Source: Chloroflexota bacterium (lineage in GTDB: Bacteria > Chloroflexota > Anaerolineae > UBA4142). Taken from it: 64,000 nucleotides of DNA. Shown one piece after another: positions 32,226 to 41,472 of this stretch (its first letter is position 1; each line of letters starts with the position of its first letter). The translations under genes and the position numbers were made by a program. The notes below the pieces were generated by a model, which was not told where the DNA came from, searched no databases, and saw only the letters and a list, made by a program, of their open reading frames with translations. The stretch spans positions 1 to 64,000 of the forward strand of contig JACRBM010000031.1 in NCBI GenBank assembly GCA_016219275.1, written 5' to 3'.

Positions 32226-33518
32226 ATGCAAGAAACGATCTTGTCCGCGCCGCCGATGCAAACGGCGTCCGATGTGGTTGACCTCTTGACCTCCAGCGCC
32301 GCACGCGAATTGCAAAAGACGCCCGCCGACGAACGCACCGGCGCGTTGCTCGGTCCGATCAAAGTCGTGCACGCGTTCTGGCTCGCCGGGATGAGTTGCG
32401 ACGGCTGTACGATCGCCGTCACCGGCGCAACCTCGCCGAGCGTCGAAGATTTATTGACCGGGCGTTTGCCCGGCGTTCCGCGTTTGGTCTTGCATCACTC
32501 GGTCGTTTCCGTCGAAGCCGGCGCCGAGTTCATCAAGAATTATGAACTCGCCGCGGCGGGGCAACTGAATGCGCCCTACGTCGTGATTTATGAAGGGTCC
32601 ATCGCGGACGAGAGCATCGCGGAAAAAACCGGCGGCTACTGGAGCGCCATGGGCGCGGACGCGCACGATCAGCCGATTCCGACTGCGACCTGGCTCAAGC
32701 GACTCGCGCCCGGCGCGGCGGCGGTGATCGCGATCGGCACGTGCGCGACCTGGGGCGGCATTCCGGCGGCGATTGGCAATCCCACTCACGCGATGGGCGT
32801 GATGGATTTTCTGGGCAAGGATTATCGCAGCGCGCTCGGTTTGCCGGTCGTCAACATCCCAGGTTGTTCGCCCGTCGGCGATAATTTTAGCGAAACGGTC
32901 GCCGCGGTGTTGTTGTTCTTGCAAGGATTGGGACCACTTCCGGAATTTGATGAACTGGGTCGTCCGGCGTGGCTCTTCAATCAAACGGTTCACCAGGGTT
33001 GCTCGCGCGCGGGATTTTACGAAGAAGGAATTTTCGCCGACCATTACGGCGATCAACGTTGTCTCGTGGAGATTGGTTGCTGGGGACCGGTCGTGCAATG
33101 CAACATCGCGCGGCGCGGCGCGATCAATCACGTCGGCGGTTGTATGAACGTCGGCGGCATCTGCATCGGTTGCACGATGCCCGGTTTTCCGGATCGCTTT
33201 GCGCCGTTCTATCAACGCCCGCCGGGCACGATGCTTTCGTCGAGCGCGTCGCGCGCGCACGGTTTTCTCATCAATAATCTGCGCCGCTTGACGCAAAAGC
33301 ATTTGAATCGTTCGCGGCTGTGGGGCGACCTGGGCGATGTGCCGAGTGGCTGGGGACATGTGCCCAAATTGAACTGGTTCGAACGCATCGAGCATCGTTT
33401 CTACGAACGCTTGCAATGGTGGCGCGGCGGCGAACCGATCGGACACGTTACATTTAGATCGTTCTACGGTCTCCCGCATCCTCACGAAGAAGAAAAACCG
33501 GCGGACAAAAAGGAGTGA
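32226..33518 (+). CDS. hhyS: [NiFe] hydrogenase small subunit, group 1h (actinobacterial high-affinity type)
   Basis: Electron-transfer subunit of a high-affinity H2-oxidising [NiFe] hydrogenase. Proximal-cluster segments are GMSCDGC (58-61), GTCATWGG and PGCSPVGDN; medial/distal ligands are in HQGCSRAGFY, QRCLVEIGCWGPVVQCN and GGICIGCTMPGF. The Asp within CDGC matches the 3Cys-1Asp cluster described for oxygen-insensitive actinobacterial-type enzymes such as that of Ralstonia eutropha. No Tat signal is present, as in group 1h. Length is 430 residues. The ATG at 32226 follows GGGGAAGG. It heads the hydrogenase operon. Confidence 0.92.
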   Translation: MQETILSAPPMQTASDVVDLLTSSAARELQKTPADERTGALLGPIKVVHAFWLAGMSCDGCTIAVTGATSPSVEDLLTGRLPGVPRLVLHHSVVSVEAGAEFIKNYELAAAGQLNAPYVVIYEGSIADESIAEKTGGYWSAMGADAHDQPIPTATWLKRLAPGAAAVIAIGTCATWGGIPAAIGNPTHAMGVMDFLGKDYRSALGLPVVNIPGCSPVGDNFSETVAAVLLFLQGLGPLPEFDELGRPAWLFNQTVHQGCSRAGFYEEGIFADHYGDQRCLVEIGCWGPVVQCNIARRGAINHVGGCMNVGGICIGCTMPGFPDRFAPFYQRPPGTMLSSSASRAHGFLINNLRRLTQKHLNRSRLWGDLGDVPSGWGHVPKLNWFERIEHRFYERLQWWRGGEPIGHVTFRSFYGLPHPHEEEKPADKKE

Positions 33519-33523
33519 CGCGA

Positions 33524-33838
33524 ATGACGGATGCTCAAATTCTCAACGTTTGGTTGATTGGTCTGGGAGTCGCGGCAGTCGTCGTCGTGATCGCGGCGGC
33601 GCTTTTGCTCGCGGTATTGAACGCGGCGAAGAGCATCGAACGCGGCGCAGGCGCGGCGCTCGGCATGGTTAAACAAATTCGCGAAAACACCCAGGTCATC
33701 TGGGCATTGCAAGACACGAACCAGGTCGCGCGTCAATTGCTCTGCGGCGCGAACGCCATTCTCGCGGACGCGCGCGAAATCGCGCAAGCGTTGCACGATG
33801 CCGACGCCCGCAGGGGGCAAGGGAGGGCGCGACTATGA
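33524..33838 (+). CDS. Small single-TM coiled-coil protein 1 of the hydrogenase operon
   Basis: A 104-residue protein with one N-terminal helix (VWLIGLGVAAVVVVIAAALL, residues about 9-30) followed by a helical, probably coiled-coil segment (LNAAKSIERGAGAALGMVKQ and NTQVIWALQDTNQVARQLL). It belongs to the same subfamily as the products at 33835 and 34456. It starts six bases after hhyS with GGAG upstream and overlaps the next gene by ATGA. Its position suggests a membrane anchor or quinone-coupling role for the hydrogenase; no known family is recognised. Confidence 0.78.
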   Translation: MTDAQILNVWLIGLGVAAVVVVIAAALLLAVLNAAKSIERGAGAALGMVKQIRENTQVIWALQDTNQVARQLLCGANAILADAREIAQALHDADARRGQGRARL

Positions 33839-34146
33839 CACCCGAAACAGTTTACAATCTCTGGTGGATCTCGCTTGTAATTTTGTTGGTCGTCACGGGT
33901 GTCGTTGCCGCGTTGTTGACGATGATCCTGCGAACTGCGCGCACGATTGATCACGTCGCGGGCGACATTTGGACGACCGGCAAACTGGTCGCGAACAACA
34001 CCGTGCACATTCCTCTGTTGATCGAGACGAATCGCCACGCGGGCGCGATTCTCGAAACCGCCAAGCAAATCGTCGCGGGCGCGCACGCGATCGAGCAACA
34101 CGCCGCGGGTTGTCCCGGTTGTCCCGCGTGCGTGCTTTCACGTTGA
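33835..34146 (+). CDS. Small single-TM coiled-coil protein 2 of the hydrogenase operon
   Basis: A 103-residue protein with an N-terminal membrane helix (ISLVILLVVTGVVAALLTMI) and a helical stretch (LRTARTIDHVAGDIWTTGKL, NTVHIPLLIETNRHAGAIL) parallel to protein 1. It is unique in ending with CPGCPACVLSR, three cysteines that could bind a metal or cluster. The ATG overlaps the previous stop. Function inferred only from context. Confidence 0.75.
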   Translation: MTPETVYNLWWISLVILLVVTGVVAALLTMILRTARTIDHVAGDIWTTGKLVANNTVHIPLLIETNRHAGAILETAKQIVAGAHAIEQHAAGCPGCPACVLSR

Positions 34147-34159
34147 CCAGGAGGCGACG

Positions 34160-34459
34160 ATGCTCATTTTACTTACGCTCATCTCCGCGTTGGTGGTCGT
34201 CATCTTCTTTGGTGTCGTGGTGGCGTACTTGTTCTTGATCGCCAAGACGCTCGAATCCATCGGCGGACGCGGCGACAGTTTCCTCGCCAAGTTGCGTTTG
34301 GGTCTGCGCGCGATTGAACAGGAGACGAGTCATCTGCCCGCCGAGGTGACGAAACTAAACAGCGGCTTGACCCAGGTCGCAGCGGGCTTGAAGCAGGTGG
34401 ACACGCATCTGGTCAAGACGATTGAAGCGGTCGTCAAGCAAAAGGAGGCGACGCGATGA
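34160..34459 (+). CDS. Small single-TM coiled-coil protein 3 of the hydrogenase operon
   Basis: A 99-residue protein with an N-terminal helix (LILLTLISALVVVIFFGVVV) and a cytoplasmic helical tail with heptad-like hydrophobics (ETSHLPAEVTKLNSGLTQVA, then GLKQVDTHLVKTIEAVV). It resembles the product at 34921 (both have L-x-x-L-T-Q-L/V and ending helices) rather than proteins 1, 2 and 4. AGGAGG lies before the ATG, and its end overlaps gene 4 by four bases. Confidence 0.75.
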   Translation: MLILLTLISALVVVIFFGVVVAYLFLIAKTLESIGGRGDSFLAKLRLGLRAIEQETSHLPAEVTKLNSGLTQVAAGLKQVDTHLVKTIEAVVKQKEATR

Positions 34460-34767
34460 TGGACGTGCCCGACCTGGTTTATTGGATTTGGGGAATCACT
34501 CTAGCCATCGCCGTGCTGGTCATTCTGCCGGTGACGGTCTGGCTCCTTCAACGGACCTTGAACGCGGCGCGCAGTATCGAACGCTATTTCGCCGAGATGC
34601 GCGACGCGGGTGTCGGTATCGCGAACAACACGCGCAACATCAAAGCGTTGGATGACACGATTGGCGTCGCAACGCAAATCCTGGGTGTTGCCGGCGACAT
34701 CAAGTCGCATACCGCGACGATTGGCGCGACGCTGACGAGTCGCGCGAATGAAAATGGACGCGGCTGA
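34456..34767 (+). CDS. Small single-TM coiled-coil protein 4 of the hydrogenase operon
   Basis: A 103-residue protein: membrane helix WGITLAIAVLVILPVTVWLL near residues 12-31, then LNAARSIERYFAEMRDAGVG and NTRNIKALDDTIGVATQIL. The LNAA(K/R)SIER sequence is shared with protein 1, placing it in the same subfamily. The start overlaps gene 3. A MITE-like repeat begins two bases after its stop. Confidence 0.75.
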   Translation: MMDVPDLVYWIWGITLAIAVLVILPVTVWLLQRTLNAARSIERYFAEMRDAGVGIANNTRNIKALDDTIGVATQILGVAGDIKSHTATIGATLTSRANENGRG

Positions 34768-34768
34768 T

Positions 34769-34890
34769 TGTCATTGCGAGGGCGGTCTTTGCCCGAACCA
34801 ATCTCCAACCCCACCCTAGCCCTCCCCTTGTTAAGGGGAGGGTTGGGAGGGGTGATTACTTCGGCGCACAAGCCGCGCCTCGCAATGACA
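34769..34890 (+). repeat. MITE-like palindromic element, copy A
   Basis: Terminal inverted repeats TGTCATTGCGAGG and CCTCGCAATGACA bound a 122-base element with an internal hairpin (CCCTCCCCTTGTTAAGGGGAGG region). Copy B at 41355-41472 carries the same core in reverse orientation, matching at all but about one of 59 core positions. Confidence 0.88.
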
Positions 34891-34920
34891 GGATGAATAG
34901 TACTCCATAGAAAGGCAATC

Positions 34921-35190
34921 ATGGGAACGATTCTCGCATCCATTTCGCTCGTGGTCGTTTTGATCGTCGTGCTCGCGCTGGTCGCTTATTTACTCGGTAT
35001 CATCGCGGCATTGCGCGGCGCGAATCGCAATCTCTACCAGTTGGCGGGCGGTCTCGACGCAATTGTGAAAGACACCCAGCCACTCACCGGCAAACTGAGC
35101 ACGATCAACGGCGCGCTGACCCAGTTATTGACCGGCTTGCTCGCCGTCGAAGCCGATCTCGCGGCGGTGGCTAGACTACTCCGACGCTGA
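34921..35190 (+). CDS. Small single-TM coiled-coil protein 5 of the hydrogenase operon
   Basis: An 89-residue protein with an N-terminal helix (LVVVLIVVLALVAYLLGII) and a helical tail (GGLDAIVKDTQPLTGKLSTI, NGALTQLLTGLLAVEADL). It is most similar to protein 3. It is the last of five small membrane proteins placed between hydrogenase small and large subunits, separated from protein 4 by the inserted repeat. AAAGG lies ahead of the ATG. Confidence 0.75.
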   Translation: MGTILASISLVVVLIVVLALVAYLLGIIAALRGANRNLYQLAGGLDAIVKDTQPLTGKLSTINGALTQLLTGLLAVEADLAAVARLLRR

Positions 35191-35284: not shown

Positions 35285-37162
35285 ATGTGTTTCAAAAATC
35301 TACCCATCGAGTTTGACGAACACGGCAAGGCATACTTGAAAGAGGGTGTGCGCGATCCCTACGCGTATCAAACACTCTCGCTCGACGCGCAAGCCGATAA
35401 AATCAAGGATTTGCTCGCGCGCAACGGTCACATCAAATCGGTGGATTTCGATCCGGTGACGCGCGTCGCGGGCGCGCTCGCGTTTCACAGCGTCGTGGAT
35501 TTGAAAGAGCGCCGCGTCCTCGAAACGAATTCGATGGCGACCTTGTTTCGCGGCTACGAGATCATTCTCAAGGGACGCGATCCGCGCGATGCCGCGTTCA
35601 TCAGCAGTCGCGCGTGCGGCGTGTGCGGCGGCGTCCACGCGGCGACTTCGGCGCTCTCGCTCGAAATGGCTTTCCCGGTCGCGCCGCCGCCGCTCGGCAT
35701 CGCCACGCGCAACCTCTTGCTCGCGATTGAATTTCTCTACGATCATCCGCTTCATCTTTTTTTGCTAGCGGGACCGGATTATTCGCAAGCCATCATGCAA
35801 CTCACGAATCCGGAAATCTGGGAACGCGCCAAGACCACGCCCGCGCCGCACGCGAACTGGCACGGCTATCGCACGATTGGCGACATTATGGTGGATATGA
35901 ACCCGCTAACCGGCGCGTTGTATCTCGAAGCGTTGCACATGACACGCGTCGCGCGCGAAGCGTACGTTCTGCTCGGCGGCAAATATCCGCATCCCGAAAC
36001 GGTAATTCCCGGCGGCATGACCTCGACGATTAGCATTACGTCGTTCAACGAAGTGTACTCGCGCATCGCGCGCTTTTTCGATTACTCGAAAAAAGTCGTG
36101 GGCATCTGGGATGACCTGACTGAATTTTTCTATGCGGCGAATCCGGCGTACAAGCAAGTCGGCGCGCGCCCGGCGAACATGATTGATCCCGGCATCTGGG
36201 ATGATCCGTTCGCGTACGACGCGTCGTACGCGAATTGCAACGCGTGGGGCGAGAAACGCTGGGCAACGCCGGGTGTGATCGTGGACGGGCAAGTCGTGAC
36301 GACGAAACTGCAAGCGTTGAACATCGGCATCGAAGAATTCGTCGAACATTCGTATTACGACACCTGGGACAATCCGCGTTTCAAAACCGATCCGGCTGGC
36401 AATCCGCTCAGCCCGCACCACATGTGGAACAAGGACACCAAACCGCGTCCGAGCGGACAAAACTGGCGCGAGAAATATTCCTGGGATACTTCGCCGCGCT
36501 GGGATCGCAAAGCGATGGAAGCGGAATGCGCCGCGCGTTTGTGGAACACCGCGGCGGGCGGCGTGTTTCCGCACACGCGTTTCATCCAAGCGACAGGCAC
36601 GAGTCTCAAACTTCAAGTGCCTGAGGGCAAACAACCTGCCGTCGAAATGGAATGGCATGTGCCGGCGGTGTGGAATGCGTTCGAGCGCAATCGCGGGCGC
36701 GCGTACTGCATTCCGTACACCGTGATGGTCGCGTTCGACAACTGGCTCATCGGTTTGGATTTACTCAAACAGGGCAAGGACAAGATTCACACGCCGTTCG
36801 AACTGCCGCGCAATGGTACACACATCGGCGCGGGATTCTGGGGCGCGGGGCGCGGCTTTTTGACGCATCACGCGATTATTGACAACGGCGTTCTGAGCAA
36901 TTACCAAATTGTAACCCCTTCGACCTGGAACGCGAGTCCGCGCGGTCCGCAAGGCGACCCAGGACCGTACGAAGAAGCGGTGATGAACACGCCGATTTTA
37001 GAGAACGCGTCTAGCATCGAAAATTTCAAAGGCATTGACATTCTGCGAACGATTCGCAGTTTCGACCCGTGTATGCCATGCACGACGCACGTTCACGTTG
37101 ACGGCACGAATCACGTCGTCGTGCGCGAGGTGAATACGTGCGCGTGTGGGCTGGACGAATAA
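35285..37162 (+). CDS. hhyL: [NiFe] hydrogenase large subunit, group 1h
   Basis: Catalytic subunit carrying the NiFe(CN)2CO site. L1 is RACGVCGGVH (109-118, Cys 111 and 114) and L2 is DPCMPCTTH near the end (Cys 596 and 599). About 23 residues follow the final His, ending VNTCACGLDE, the usual place of a peptide removed by a maturation protease. The 625 residues fit the actinobacterial-type enzyme, which oxidises atmospheric or trace H2. It lies after the five small proteins; two protease-like genes and a Rieske protein follow. The cysteines in the C-terminal extension are unusual. Confidence 0.93.
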   Translation: MCFKNLPIEFDEHGKAYLKEGVRDPYAYQTLSLDAQADKIKDLLARNGHIKSVDFDPVTRVAGALAFHSVVDLKERRVLETNSMATLFRGYEIILKGRDPRDAAFISSRACGVCGGVHAATSALSLEMAFPVAPPPLGIATRNLLLAIEFLYDHPLHLFLLAGPDYSQAIMQLTNPEIWERAKTTPAPHANWHGYRTIGDIMVDMNPLTGALYLEALHMTRVAREAYVLLGGKYPHPETVIPGGMTSTISITSFNEVYSRIARFFDYSKKVVGIWDDLTEFFYAANPAYKQVGARPANMIDPGIWDDPFAYDASYANCNAWGEKRWATPGVIVDGQVVTTKLQALNIGIEEFVEHSYYDTWDNPRFKTDPAGNPLSPHHMWNKDTKPRPSGQNWREKYSWDTSPRWDRKAMEAECAARLWNTAAGGVFPHTRFIQATGTSLKLQVPEGKQPAVEMEWHVPAVWNAFERNRGRAYCIPYTVMVAFDNWLIGLDLLKQGKDKIHTPFELPRNGTHIGAGFWGAGRGFLTHHAIIDNGVLSNYQIVTPSTWNASPRGPQGDPGPYEEAVMNTPILENASSIENFKGIDILRTIRSFDPCMPCTTHVHVDGTNHVVVREVNTCACGLDE

Positions 37163-37237: not shown

Positions 37238-37732
37238 ATGCGAACACTAATCGCCGGCGTCGGCTATCACAATTTGCGCGACCTATCCATCGGACCCATG
37301 TTGGTCGCGAAATTAAAGCAACTCGATTGGCGCGCCAACGTCGAGATTGACGATTTGAGTTTCGGTCCCATCGCCGTCGTGCAAAGATTGCAAGACCAGC
37401 CATGTTACTACGACCGCGTCGTATTCGTTGCCGGCGTGCAACGCGGGCGCGCGCCGGGTCAAATTTTTTCGTATCACTGGGACAGCGCGTTGCCGAGCAA
37501 GGACGAAATCCAACAGCGGATCGGCGAAGCGGTCACCGGCGTCGTGAGTCTCGACAATCTGTTGATCATTGCCCAACACTTTGGCGTTCTGCCGCGCGAT
37601 GTGCGCGTCGTCGAGGTCGAACCGGCGGACACGAGCTTTGGACTTGAACTTACACCGCGCATCGAGGCAGTGTTCGATCAAGTGATTCAAGCCGTGAAGA
37701 ATGCGGCGCTAGAAACGAGTGTTCCAGCATGA
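37238..37732 (+). CDS. Degenerate hydrogenase maturation protease-like protein
   Basis: A 164-residue protein with the HyaD/HybD fold pattern: LIAGVGYHNLRDLSIGPMLV resembles the GxGNxLxxDDGxG start, and VVFVAGVQRG corresponds to the strand that normally reads VVDAV. In HybD, nickel is held by Glu16, Asp62 and His93; here the central Asp is Ala-Gly and the final His region reads VVSLDNLL. It is therefore probably not a working protease, and may instead be a scaffold or Ni-site chaperone. It overlaps the Rieske gene by four bases. Confidence 0.75.
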   Translation: MRTLIAGVGYHNLRDLSIGPMLVAKLKQLDWRANVEIDDLSFGPIAVVQRLQDQPCYYDRVVFVAGVQRGRAPGQIFSYHWDSALPSKDEIQQRIGEAVTGVVSLDNLLIIAQHFGVLPRDVRVVEVEPADTSFGLELTPRIEAVFDQVIQAVKNAALETSVPA

Positions 37733-38403
37733 GCGCGGATCGGCAAACAGAACTAGAGTTCAACGCGACGTTGCAACACCTCGACGAACTGGTTCAGGAA
37801 TTCGAGCATCTGCCGTTGCCTAAAGTCCGCGCAAAAGCAATGGAGATGCTCGCAACGATTGACGCGGTACATCGCGAAGGATTAAGCCGGCTCATCGCGT
37901 TCATCCGCGAACAAGGTCACGCCGATCTCGTCTTGCGCGCCGCGCACGATCCCATCGTCCACGCGTTACTCCTGCTGTACGATTTTCTTCCCGATGACGA
38001 AACGCCCGGATTTATTCCGTTCGATCAACTGGCGACCTTGCCGCCGCGCGAAAGACGACGCCCAGTTTTTTCTCCCATCGCGCGCGCGCAAGACATTGCG
38101 CTTGGAACGTATCGGGTGTACGATATTGATAATGCACGCGTCTTTATCGCGAATGTGAACGGCGACATTTACGCAGTGCGAAACAATTGTCCCGGCAGCG
38201 CCGCGCCGCTGAACCTGGGTCCGTTCACACCGCCCATCATCGTTTGTCCCTGGCATAACGAGGCGTGGGACATTCGCACTGGCAAACGTTCGGATGGGCA
38301 AGCCGGACCGAATCTCCAAGTCCTGCCGGTCGCGATTGTGGATGGCGTAATTCAGTTGGCGATCAACACGACACGCGCGAACAGCACACCAGGAGTCGGA
38401 TGA
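37729..38403 (+). CDS. Rieske-type [2Fe-2S] protein with a substituted ligand
   Basis: A 224-residue protein with an N-terminal helical domain (1-105) and a C-terminal Rieske domain (about 110-215). The second ligand box CPWH (Cys173, His176) is intact, but the first box reads CPGS (Cys154, Gly156) where CxH is expected. So only one His ligand remains, unless another residue substitutes. Rieske-like genes accompany group 1h hydrogenases and are thought to pass electrons onward. It is coupled to both neighbours by ATGA overlaps. Confidence 0.82.
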   Translation: MSADRQTELEFNATLQHLDELVQEFEHLPLPKVRAKAMEMLATIDAVHREGLSRLIAFIREQGHADLVLRAAHDPIVHALLLLYDFLPDDETPGFIPFDQLATLPPRERRRPVFSPIARAQDIALGTYRVYDIDNARVFIANVNGDIYAVRNNCPGSAAPLNLGPFTPPIIVCPWHNEAWDIRTGKRSDGQAGPNLQVLPVAIVDGVIQLAINTTRANSTPGVG

Positions 38404-38912
38404 AGCGCGTTCTGATCGCCGGGATGGGCAATGTCTTGCGCCGCGACGATGGTTTTGGTGTGCAGGTCGCCAAACATCTCGCCGACACAAACACGTTTCC
38501 CGCGAACGTCAAGGTCGTCGAGGTGGGCATTGGCGGCATCCATCTCGTCCAGGAATTGATGGCGGGCTACGATGTGTTGGTCGTGGTGGATGCCGTCGAA
38601 CACGGGAGCGCGCCGGGAACGATGCGCGCCTCGCAAGCGGATGTGCCCGACCTGGGTTCCTGGGAGGAAGATGCGCGACGCGATTTTCTTTCCGACATGC
38701 ACTATACGACGCCAAGCCAGGCGTTGATTCTTGCCAAGGCGCTCGGCGTTTTGCCGCCCCAGGTTTTCATCGTGGGCTGTCAGCCCGGCGACGTGAACGA
38801 CCTAGGCATTGGTTTGACGGAACCGGTCGCGCGCGCGGCGCAGACGACGATTCGCGTGATCGAAAAAATCGTTCGGGAGACTCAGCGTGGCGAAACGACC
38901 AGCGAAAAATGA
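38400..38912 (+). CDS. Hydrogenase maturation protease
   Basis: A 170-residue HyaD/HoxM-type endopeptidase that removes the C-terminal peptide of the large subunit after nickel insertion. All family landmarks are present: LIAGMGNVLRRDDGFGVQVA, VVVVDAVEHG with the metal-binding Asp, and DMHYTTPSQALILA with the His. The ATG (38400) overlaps the Rieske stop. It is the functional counterpart of the degenerate homologue at 37238. Its 3' end overlaps the wHTH gene by 26 bases. Confidence 0.92.
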   Translation: MKRVLIAGMGNVLRRDDGFGVQVAKHLADTNTFPANVKVVEVGIGGIHLVQELMAGYDVLVVVDAVEHGSAPGTMRASQADVPDLGSWEEDARRDFLSDMHYTTPSQALILAKALGVLPPQVFIVGCQPGDVNDLGIGLTEPVARAAQTTIRVIEKIVRETQRGETTSEK

Positions 38913-41296: not shown

Positions 41297-41354
41297 GGCA
41301 ACGATATTAGCGAACTAGTACGCCGGACGAACAGCATAAAGGGGCACCTCAGAC

Positions 41355-41472
41355 TGTTTTTGCGAGGAGCGCAGCGACGAAGCAATCACCCCTCCCAACC
41401 CTCCCCTTGACAAGGGGAGGGCTAGGGTGGGGTTGGAGATTGCTTCGGGCAAAAAACACCCTCGCAATGACA
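41355..41472 (-). repeat. MITE-like palindromic element, copy B (inverted)
   Basis: This carries the same core as 34769-34890 but in opposite orientation, bounded by TGTTTTTGCGAGG and CCCTCGCAATGACA. The pair faces each other across 6.5 kb containing hhyL to merR. Confidence 0.88.

What the first reader, a model, noticed from the sequence alone, without database searches (positions are those of the whole stretch)
33524..35190. Five tiny single-TM coiled-coil proteins between hydrogenase small and large subunits
Five genes of 89-104 codons, in two interleaved subfamilies (1, 2, 4 sharing LNAA(K/R)SIER-like segments; 3 and 5 sharing L-T-Q repeats), separate hhyS from hhyL. The layout recalls HucM, the coiled-coil stalk that anchors mycobacterial Huc hydrogenase and shuttles quinone. 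Here a heteromeric five-protein stalk or membrane assembly is suggested. Protein 2 also ends in CPGCPAC.
Basis: partly seen in the sequence, partly recalled or inferred. Interest (0 to 1): 0.7.

Follow-up and report, generated by a model that had tools for sequence, protein, structure and literature searches.

The report
Membrane proteins of an atmospheric-hydrogen-type hydrogenase
Five small membrane proteins encoded between the two halves of a hydrogen-eating enzyme are a known but unexplained signature of one enzyme class (group 1l), and comparing many genomes here suggests they fix this otherwise soluble enzyme to the cell membrane.

Summary
The five genes are real, at the stated places, and coding (dN well below dS). 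They are not tied to a group 1h enzyme. The large subunit sits in one clade (97/96) with Hymenobacter roseosalivarius, my recalled group 1l reference, and apart from group 1h (100/100). The five interposed genes are already on record as HylTM1-5 of group 1l (PMC9561532), without a function. New here: (1) the five families keep order in 21 aligned loci from Chloroflexota, Pseudomonadota, Bacteroidota, SAR324, Rhodothermota and a Chthoniobacterales MAG. (2) They are two paralogous types, a (1, 2, 4) and b (3, 5). (3) Group-1m-like actinobacterial loci, where S and L adjoin, carry the set split 3+2 around S-L in 7 of 7 loci read far enough. (4) Cassette-bearing S subunits have a C-terminal extension that group 1h lacks. 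Each protein is predicted single-pass, N-out/C-in, with a heptad-like amphipathic cytosolic helix. Best reading: a heteromeric a/b bundle anchors the cytosolic enzyme to the membrane, possibly feeding quinone. It would work like HucM; no homology to HucM was found. Anchoring and electron route are inferred.

The parts
32226..33518 (+). [NiFe]-hydrogenase small subunit (hylS type, group 1l), no TM segment seen; C-terminal extension (about residues 366-404) of the cassette-bearing clade
   Evidence: Pfam Oxidored_q6 and NiFe_hyd_SSU_C; best PDB match HofK 5aa5; extension present in all cassette-bearing S aligned, absent in all group 1h S aligned
33524..33838 (+). HylTM1-like protein, type a, 104 aa, single N-terminal TM
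   Evidence: Conserved family TM1 in 21 loci; window E 7.2e-39 to TM1 profile; dN 0.23-0.39 vs dS 1.9-2.5
33835..34146 (+). HylTM2-like protein, type a, 103 aa, single TM, C-terminal CPGCPAC
   Evidence: Family TM2; E 6.1e-47; CxxC-type tail in 16 of 21 five-gene loci; model helices 3-56 and 60-90
34160..34459 (+). HylTM3-like protein, type b, 99 aa, single TM
   Evidence: Family TM3; E 6.7e-43; model helices 2-35, 41-56, 59-98
34456..34767 (+). HylTM4-like protein, type a, 103 aa, single TM with invariant Pro
   Evidence: Family TM4; E 1.2e-43
34921..35190 (+). HylTM5-like protein, type b, 89 aa, single TM
   Evidence: Family TM5; E 3.2e-34
35285..37162 (+). [NiFe]-hydrogenase large subunit (hylL type, group 1l)
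   Evidence: Pfam NiFeSe_Hases 8.9e-74; clade with H. roseosalivarius
37238..37732 (+). hydrogenase maturation protease
   Evidence: NCBIfam TIGR00072 6.2e-15; relatives in many of the compared loci
37729..38403 (+). accessory protein with C-terminal Rieske-like domain
   Evidence: Pfam Rieske 8.2e-9; relatives in cassette loci
38391..38912 (+). second hydrogenase maturation protease
   Evidence: NCBIfam TIGR00072 2.2e-34

Best explanation
The five genes encode the HylTM1-5 set of a group 1l [NiFe]-hydrogenase. They are dedicated accessory subunits that hold the cytosolic HylSL enzyme at the membrane. Each protein spans the membrane once with its N-terminus outside and puts an amphipathic, heptad-like helical region of about 50 residues into the cytosol. 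Three type-a proteins (1, 2, 4) and two type-b proteins (3, 5), which arose by duplication within each type, pack as a mixed bundle whose cytosolic helices dock on the small subunit, probably on its clade-specific C-terminal extension. Electrons from H2 then pass along the Fe-S chain of HylS to quinone held in or next to the bundle. Shown here: gene identity, coding, two paralogous types, linkage to one hydrogenase clade, and the correlation with the S extension. Predicted: topology and helix. Inferred: the complex, docking site and quinone delivery.
For: Order TM1-TM2-TM3-TM4-TM5 kept between S and L in all 21 five-gene loci aligned. All 8 sampled Chloroflexota genomes whose S is 59% or more identical to the window's also carry a TM3 homologue; of about 37 with a group-1h-like S only 2 do, on other contigs, and none of the rest. 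Actinobacterial S-L pairs keep the set split as 1-2-3 divergent upstream and 4-5 convergent downstream in 7 of 7 loci read far enough; in two of these the first module is blurred. S C-terminal extension in all 24 cassette-bearing S aligned (cut short in one), absent from all 8 group 1h S. Charge pattern gives C-in topology in 19-21 of 21 members of each family. Cytosolic segments peak at 102-108 degrees per residue, stronger than at least 99% of shuffles. Neither S nor L shows a Tat signal or TM segment (sequence read), so some anchor is needed for membrane electron transfer.
Against: No interaction was tested; multimer modelling was not available. Linkage and the S extension may reflect one evolutionary event, so their agreement is not many independent tests. 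Two genomes hold a/b arrays without an adjacent hydrogenase, so the proteins can exist apart from it. No sequence link to HucM was found. Group 1h enzymes associate with membranes without such genes between S and L (PMC7174314), so a cassette is not required for every high-affinity hydrogenase. Amphipathic helices alone do not show a quinone channel.
Confidence: 0.6

Rival explanations
1. The five proteins are an assembly or maturation platform: they hold S, L and the proteases at the membrane during cluster insertion but are not in the finished enzyme.
For: Genes lie beside two maturation proteases, a Rieske-like accessory and a CooC-type ATPase; the CxxC-type tail of protein 2 could bind a metal in transit.
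Against: The CxxC-type tail is missing in 5 of 21 five-gene loci and in the actinobacterial TM2. Five TM helices conserved in order and sitting between the structural genes fit a structural part better. Group 1h enzymes are matured without them.
Confidence: 0.17
2. A HucM-like conduit (a stronger form of the best explanation): the bundle forms a closed hydrophobic tube through which quinone travels from membrane to the small subunit, and organises several HylSL units into a large oligomer.
For: Amphipathic helices with heptad-like period in all five; Huc and HucM show that a hydrogenase can use such a tube (PMC10017518).
Against: HucM as published is one gene forming a tetramer that contacts the membrane peripherally; the profiles searched hit no HucM chain; no stoichiometry is known; the two modelled monomers show broken helices.
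Confidence: 0.25
3. A general membrane scaffold family of unrelated main function that was recruited next to this hydrogenase.
For: Five-gene (G054) and nine-gene (G231) a/b arrays without adjacent hydrogenase.
Against: These are 2 of 10 cassette-positive Chloroflexota genomes other than the window's; the other 8 have the cassette-type hydrogenase.
Confidence: 0.12

Closest known systems
HylTM1-5 of group 1l [NiFe]-hydrogenase (Ray et al. 2022 PMC9561532, citing Ortiz et al. 2021)
   Same: Five short predicted TM proteins between small and large subunit genes of a group 1l enzyme; H. roseosalivarius falls in the same clade and has the same five.
   Different: Nothing that separates the window from it; the passages read give no sequence families, topology or function.
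Group 1m [NiFe]-hydrogenase of Actinobacteriota (PMC9561532)
   Same: Actinobacterial loci here match its description (S and L adjacent; HybD-type protease, CooC-type ATPase, TPR, BirA-like; small TM proteins).
   Different: The paper reports two small TM proteins; here five HylTM homologues flank the S-L pair. The window has them between S and L.
HucM of Huc, group 2a (PMC10017518)
   Same: Small helical accessory protein of a high-affinity hydrogenase without its own TM subunit; amphipathic helices; membrane contact.
   Different: One gene, about 190 aa, tetramer, peripheral membrane contact through basic residues; no detectable sequence relation. The present proteins are five, about 90-104 aa, each with a TM segment.
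Group 1h HhySL (C. necator HofKG, M. intracellulare, Chloroflexota loci L015-L035)
   Same: Nearest solved hydrogenase (5aa5); no Tat signal or TM in the subunits.
   Different: S and L adjacent, no HylTM homologue found beside them, S lacks the C-terminal extension.

Membership tests
Group 1l [NiFe]-hydrogenase | Large subunit falls with the group 1l reference, apart from group 1h | tested here: met
   ML tree of 66 large subunits: five-gene clade 97/96 with H. roseosalivarius; group 1h separate 100/100. That H. roseosalivarius is the 1l reference isolate rests on my knowledge of Ortiz et al. 2021 (not held); PMC10305171 says only a Bacteroidota isolate from Antarctic soil.
Group 1l [NiFe]-hydrogenase | Five short TM proteins (HylTM1-5) between small and large subunit genes | tested here: met
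   description in PMC9561532
Group 1l [NiFe]-hydrogenase | Atmospheric H2 oxidation | not testable with these tools
   Needs culture or heterologous expression; two group 1l strains did not substantially consume H2 in PMC10305171
Group 1h [NiFe]-hydrogenase | Large subunit in group 1h clade; S and L adjacent | tested here: not met
   1766 bp and five genes lie between S and L
HucM stalk | Sequence relation to HucM | tested here: not met
   TM2, TM3 and TM4 profiles hit no HucM chain in the PDB sequence set up to E 10; HucM itself was not compared directly, and a more remote relation is not excluded
HucM stalk | Tetrameric scaffold carrying HucSL units and a hydrophobic quinone tube | not testable with these tools
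   No multimer modelling available
HucM stalk | Peripheral membrane contact rather than a TM helix | tested here: not met
   All five have a TM-like segment of 23-30 residues on average

The most novel reading that the evidence does not exclude
HylTM1-5 are obligate subunits not only of group 1l but of the whole 1l/1m-like superclade. They are built from duplicated a and b units (a+b pair, four, five, or 3+2 split) that co-evolved with a docking tail on the small subunit, making a heteromeric membrane quinone-reduction module with no homologue in other hydrogenases.
Probability: 0.4. Interest if true: 0.72.

Novelty: new member of a known kind. Interest (0 to 1): 0.5.

Why it matters
High-affinity hydrogenases remove much of the H2 in the atmosphere, yet how groups 1h, 1l and 1m reach the respiratory chain is open. 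The cassette marks one large clade with a specific partner set, and the matching small-subunit tail gives a concrete docking hypothesis to test. It also shows that group 1m-like loci, described with two small TM proteins, can carry all five.

Tried and rejected
Group 1h assignment: rejected by identity and tree. Known Pfam/NCBIfam family for the small proteins: only sub-threshold hits. HucM homology: no hit. The protein 2 CxxC-type tail as an essential metal site: not favoured, because it is absent in 5 of 21 five-gene loci and in the actinobacterial TM2. 'Cassette absent from actinobacterial loci', my first reading of the 100-bp S-L gap, was overturned by profile search. Apparent TM2-TM3 fusion in L099: one reading frame in a MAG, probably a frameshift, not used. 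Orphan arrays as partners of the group 1h enzymes in those genomes: those S subunits lack the extension. Fold search with the two monomer models was skipped, as long single helices match anything. A genome survey centred on Actinomycetota failed because 'of' takes only G handles. Ortiz et al. 2021 is not held.

Full report
What is there. The window holds a small-subunit gene (32226-33518), five short genes, and a large-subunit gene (35285-37162), all on the + strand, followed by a maturation protease, a protein with a Rieske-like domain, a second protease, and further on a CooC-type ATPase and a MerR regulator. The five proteins have no Pfam or NCBIfam family above threshold. Proteins 1, 2 and 4 find each other in a search of the whole genome. 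The genome (6.16 Mb, 107 contigs) is probably of Chloroflexota: genomes of its phylum and order coincide with contigs labelled Chloroflexi. Its nearest cassette relatives are in its own family and order.

Are the genes real? Between the window and two relatives (L100, L103) amino-acid identity is 58-73% per gene, third codon positions differ most, and dN is 0.21-0.39 against dS above 1.2 in all pairs where dS could be computed; one pair was saturated.

Which hydrogenase? The closest solved structure is the group 1h enzyme HofKG of Cupriavidus necator, but at only 42% identity in the large subunit. A tree of 66 large subunits has the group 1h set, including C. necator, Mycobacterium intracellulare and Methylocystis loci, as one side of a 100/100 branch. 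On the other side are three groups: a five-gene clade with the window and Hymenobacter roseosalivarius (97/96), a four-gene Chloroflexota clade (100/99), and an actinobacterial clade (100/100). One two-gene locus (L097) and one very long branch (L106) are of uncertain place. H. roseosalivarius as the group 1l reference isolate is from my memory of Ortiz et al. 2021, which is not held. Ray et al. [quoted passage not shown] That sentence describes this window. It is the only held paper with the term, and no function is given in the passage read.

Conservation. In one search I extracted all small TM-bearing ORFs between S and L, and aligned the 21 five-gene loci. They come from Chloroflexota, Pseudomonadota (Rhizobiaceae, Paracoccaceae, Luteimonas, Cycloclasticus), Bacteroidota, SAR324, a Rhodothermaceae MAG and a Chthoniobacterales MAG; most are MAGs, so taxon labels carry that caution. 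The order 1-2-3-4-5 holds in all. In one search two loci appear as 1-2-4-3-5, but only because midpoints of long stop-to-stop frames were sorted; the gene coordinates give the normal order. Profiles divide the proteins into type a (TM1, TM2, TM4) and type b (TM3, TM5); four-gene loci have a, b, a, b and L097 has one of each.

Actinobacterial loci. Their S and L genes nearly adjoin, which at first looked like absence. Profile search found TM1-TM2-TM3 divergently upstream of S. Fetching wider stretches of seven of these genomes showed TM4-TM5 downstream on the opposite strand in all seven. In five, each family is recovered separately; in L172 the first upstream gene scores best to TM5, and in L173 TM2 and TM3 share one frame in a MAG. 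The Amycolatopsis marina locus also has CooC-type ATPases, a TPR protein, a biotin-ligase-like protein and a HycI protease, which fits the published description of group 1m; I call these loci 1m-like, since no 1m reference sequence was compared. The paper counts two small TM proteins in group 1m.

Specificity. Among the same 400 Chloroflexota genomes, a TM3 profile hit 10 (plus the window). Eight have the cassette-type small subunit (59% identity or more), and all eight such genomes were hit. The other two (G054, G231) have group-1h-like S genes and carry a/b arrays of five and nine genes on other contigs, with no hydrogenase nearby. By my count about 37 genomes have the 1h-like S. Held flanks of the group 1h Chloroflexota loci are short (about 1.5 kb), so absence nearby rests on this whole-genome search, done with TM3 only.

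Small-subunit tail. All 24 cassette-bearing S subunits aligned continue past the point where the eight group 1h ones end, with a segment like W...PSGWG......HYFY.K; in L085 the tail is cut short by a changed frame. The two traits divide along the same branch of the tree, so this is one correlation, not many.

Anatomy and mechanism. In each family the TM segment averages 23-30 residues, N-tails are short and poor in Lys/Arg, and the 20 residues after the TM are rich in them, which predicts N-out/C-in. AlphaFold2 on the family alignments gives helices 3-56 and 60-90 for TM2 and 2-35, 41-56, 59-98 for TM3, mean pLDDT 83 and 87 but pTM below 0.4. The cytosolic parts have a hydrophobic period near a heptad (102-108 degrees; 0 to 18 of 2000 shuffles as strong). 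Neither subunit of the enzyme has a membrane segment or Tat signal by eye. I therefore think a mixed a/b bundle anchors HylSL on the cytosolic face and brings it to quinone. Huc offers a precedent for such a role by a different protein. No interaction, stoichiometry or activity was tested.

Protein 2's cysteine tail. A CxxC-type cluster ends 16 of 21 TM2 proteins: 15 by strict pattern plus CPRCPQQC in L056. It is absent in L048, L051, L052, L057, L093 and in the actinobacterial TM2 examined. It is a lineage trait rather than a core part.

Verdict. The added value is the two-type architecture, its presence in 1m-like loci in split form, the matching small-subunit tail, and a testable anchor hypothesis.

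Noticed in passing
34768-34890 and 41354-41472: A dispersed palindromic repeat (core CCTCCCCTTnnnAAGGGGAGG) sits between genes 4 and 5 and again near 41.4 kb; the genome search lists 67 matches counting both orientations, so tens of copies.
   Followed up: partly
37729-38403: The downstream Rieske-like protein lacks the His of the first CxH motif (CPGS) but keeps CPWH; relatives in cassette loci also mostly lack that His.
   Followed up: partly
L133 4580-6276 (G054:C35) and L134 3128-7219 (G231:C18): Arrays of five and nine HylTM-like genes with no hydrogenase nearby; the TM2-like member in L134 ends CKHCPTC.
   Followed up: partly
L106 242-1590: A four-gene a/b cassette lies upstream of S instead of between S and L in genome G097.
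   Followed up: no
L084 3334-5926, L086, L087: Solirubrobacteraceae and Thermoleophilaceae loci with two tandem or extra copies of the HylTM-like set.
   Followed up: no
NC_005241.1 59962-61017 (L109), also L110 and L111: The protein annotated 'hydrogenase expression protein HypE' just before the large subunit is where the small subunit matches: a naming error in the public records.
   Followed up: no
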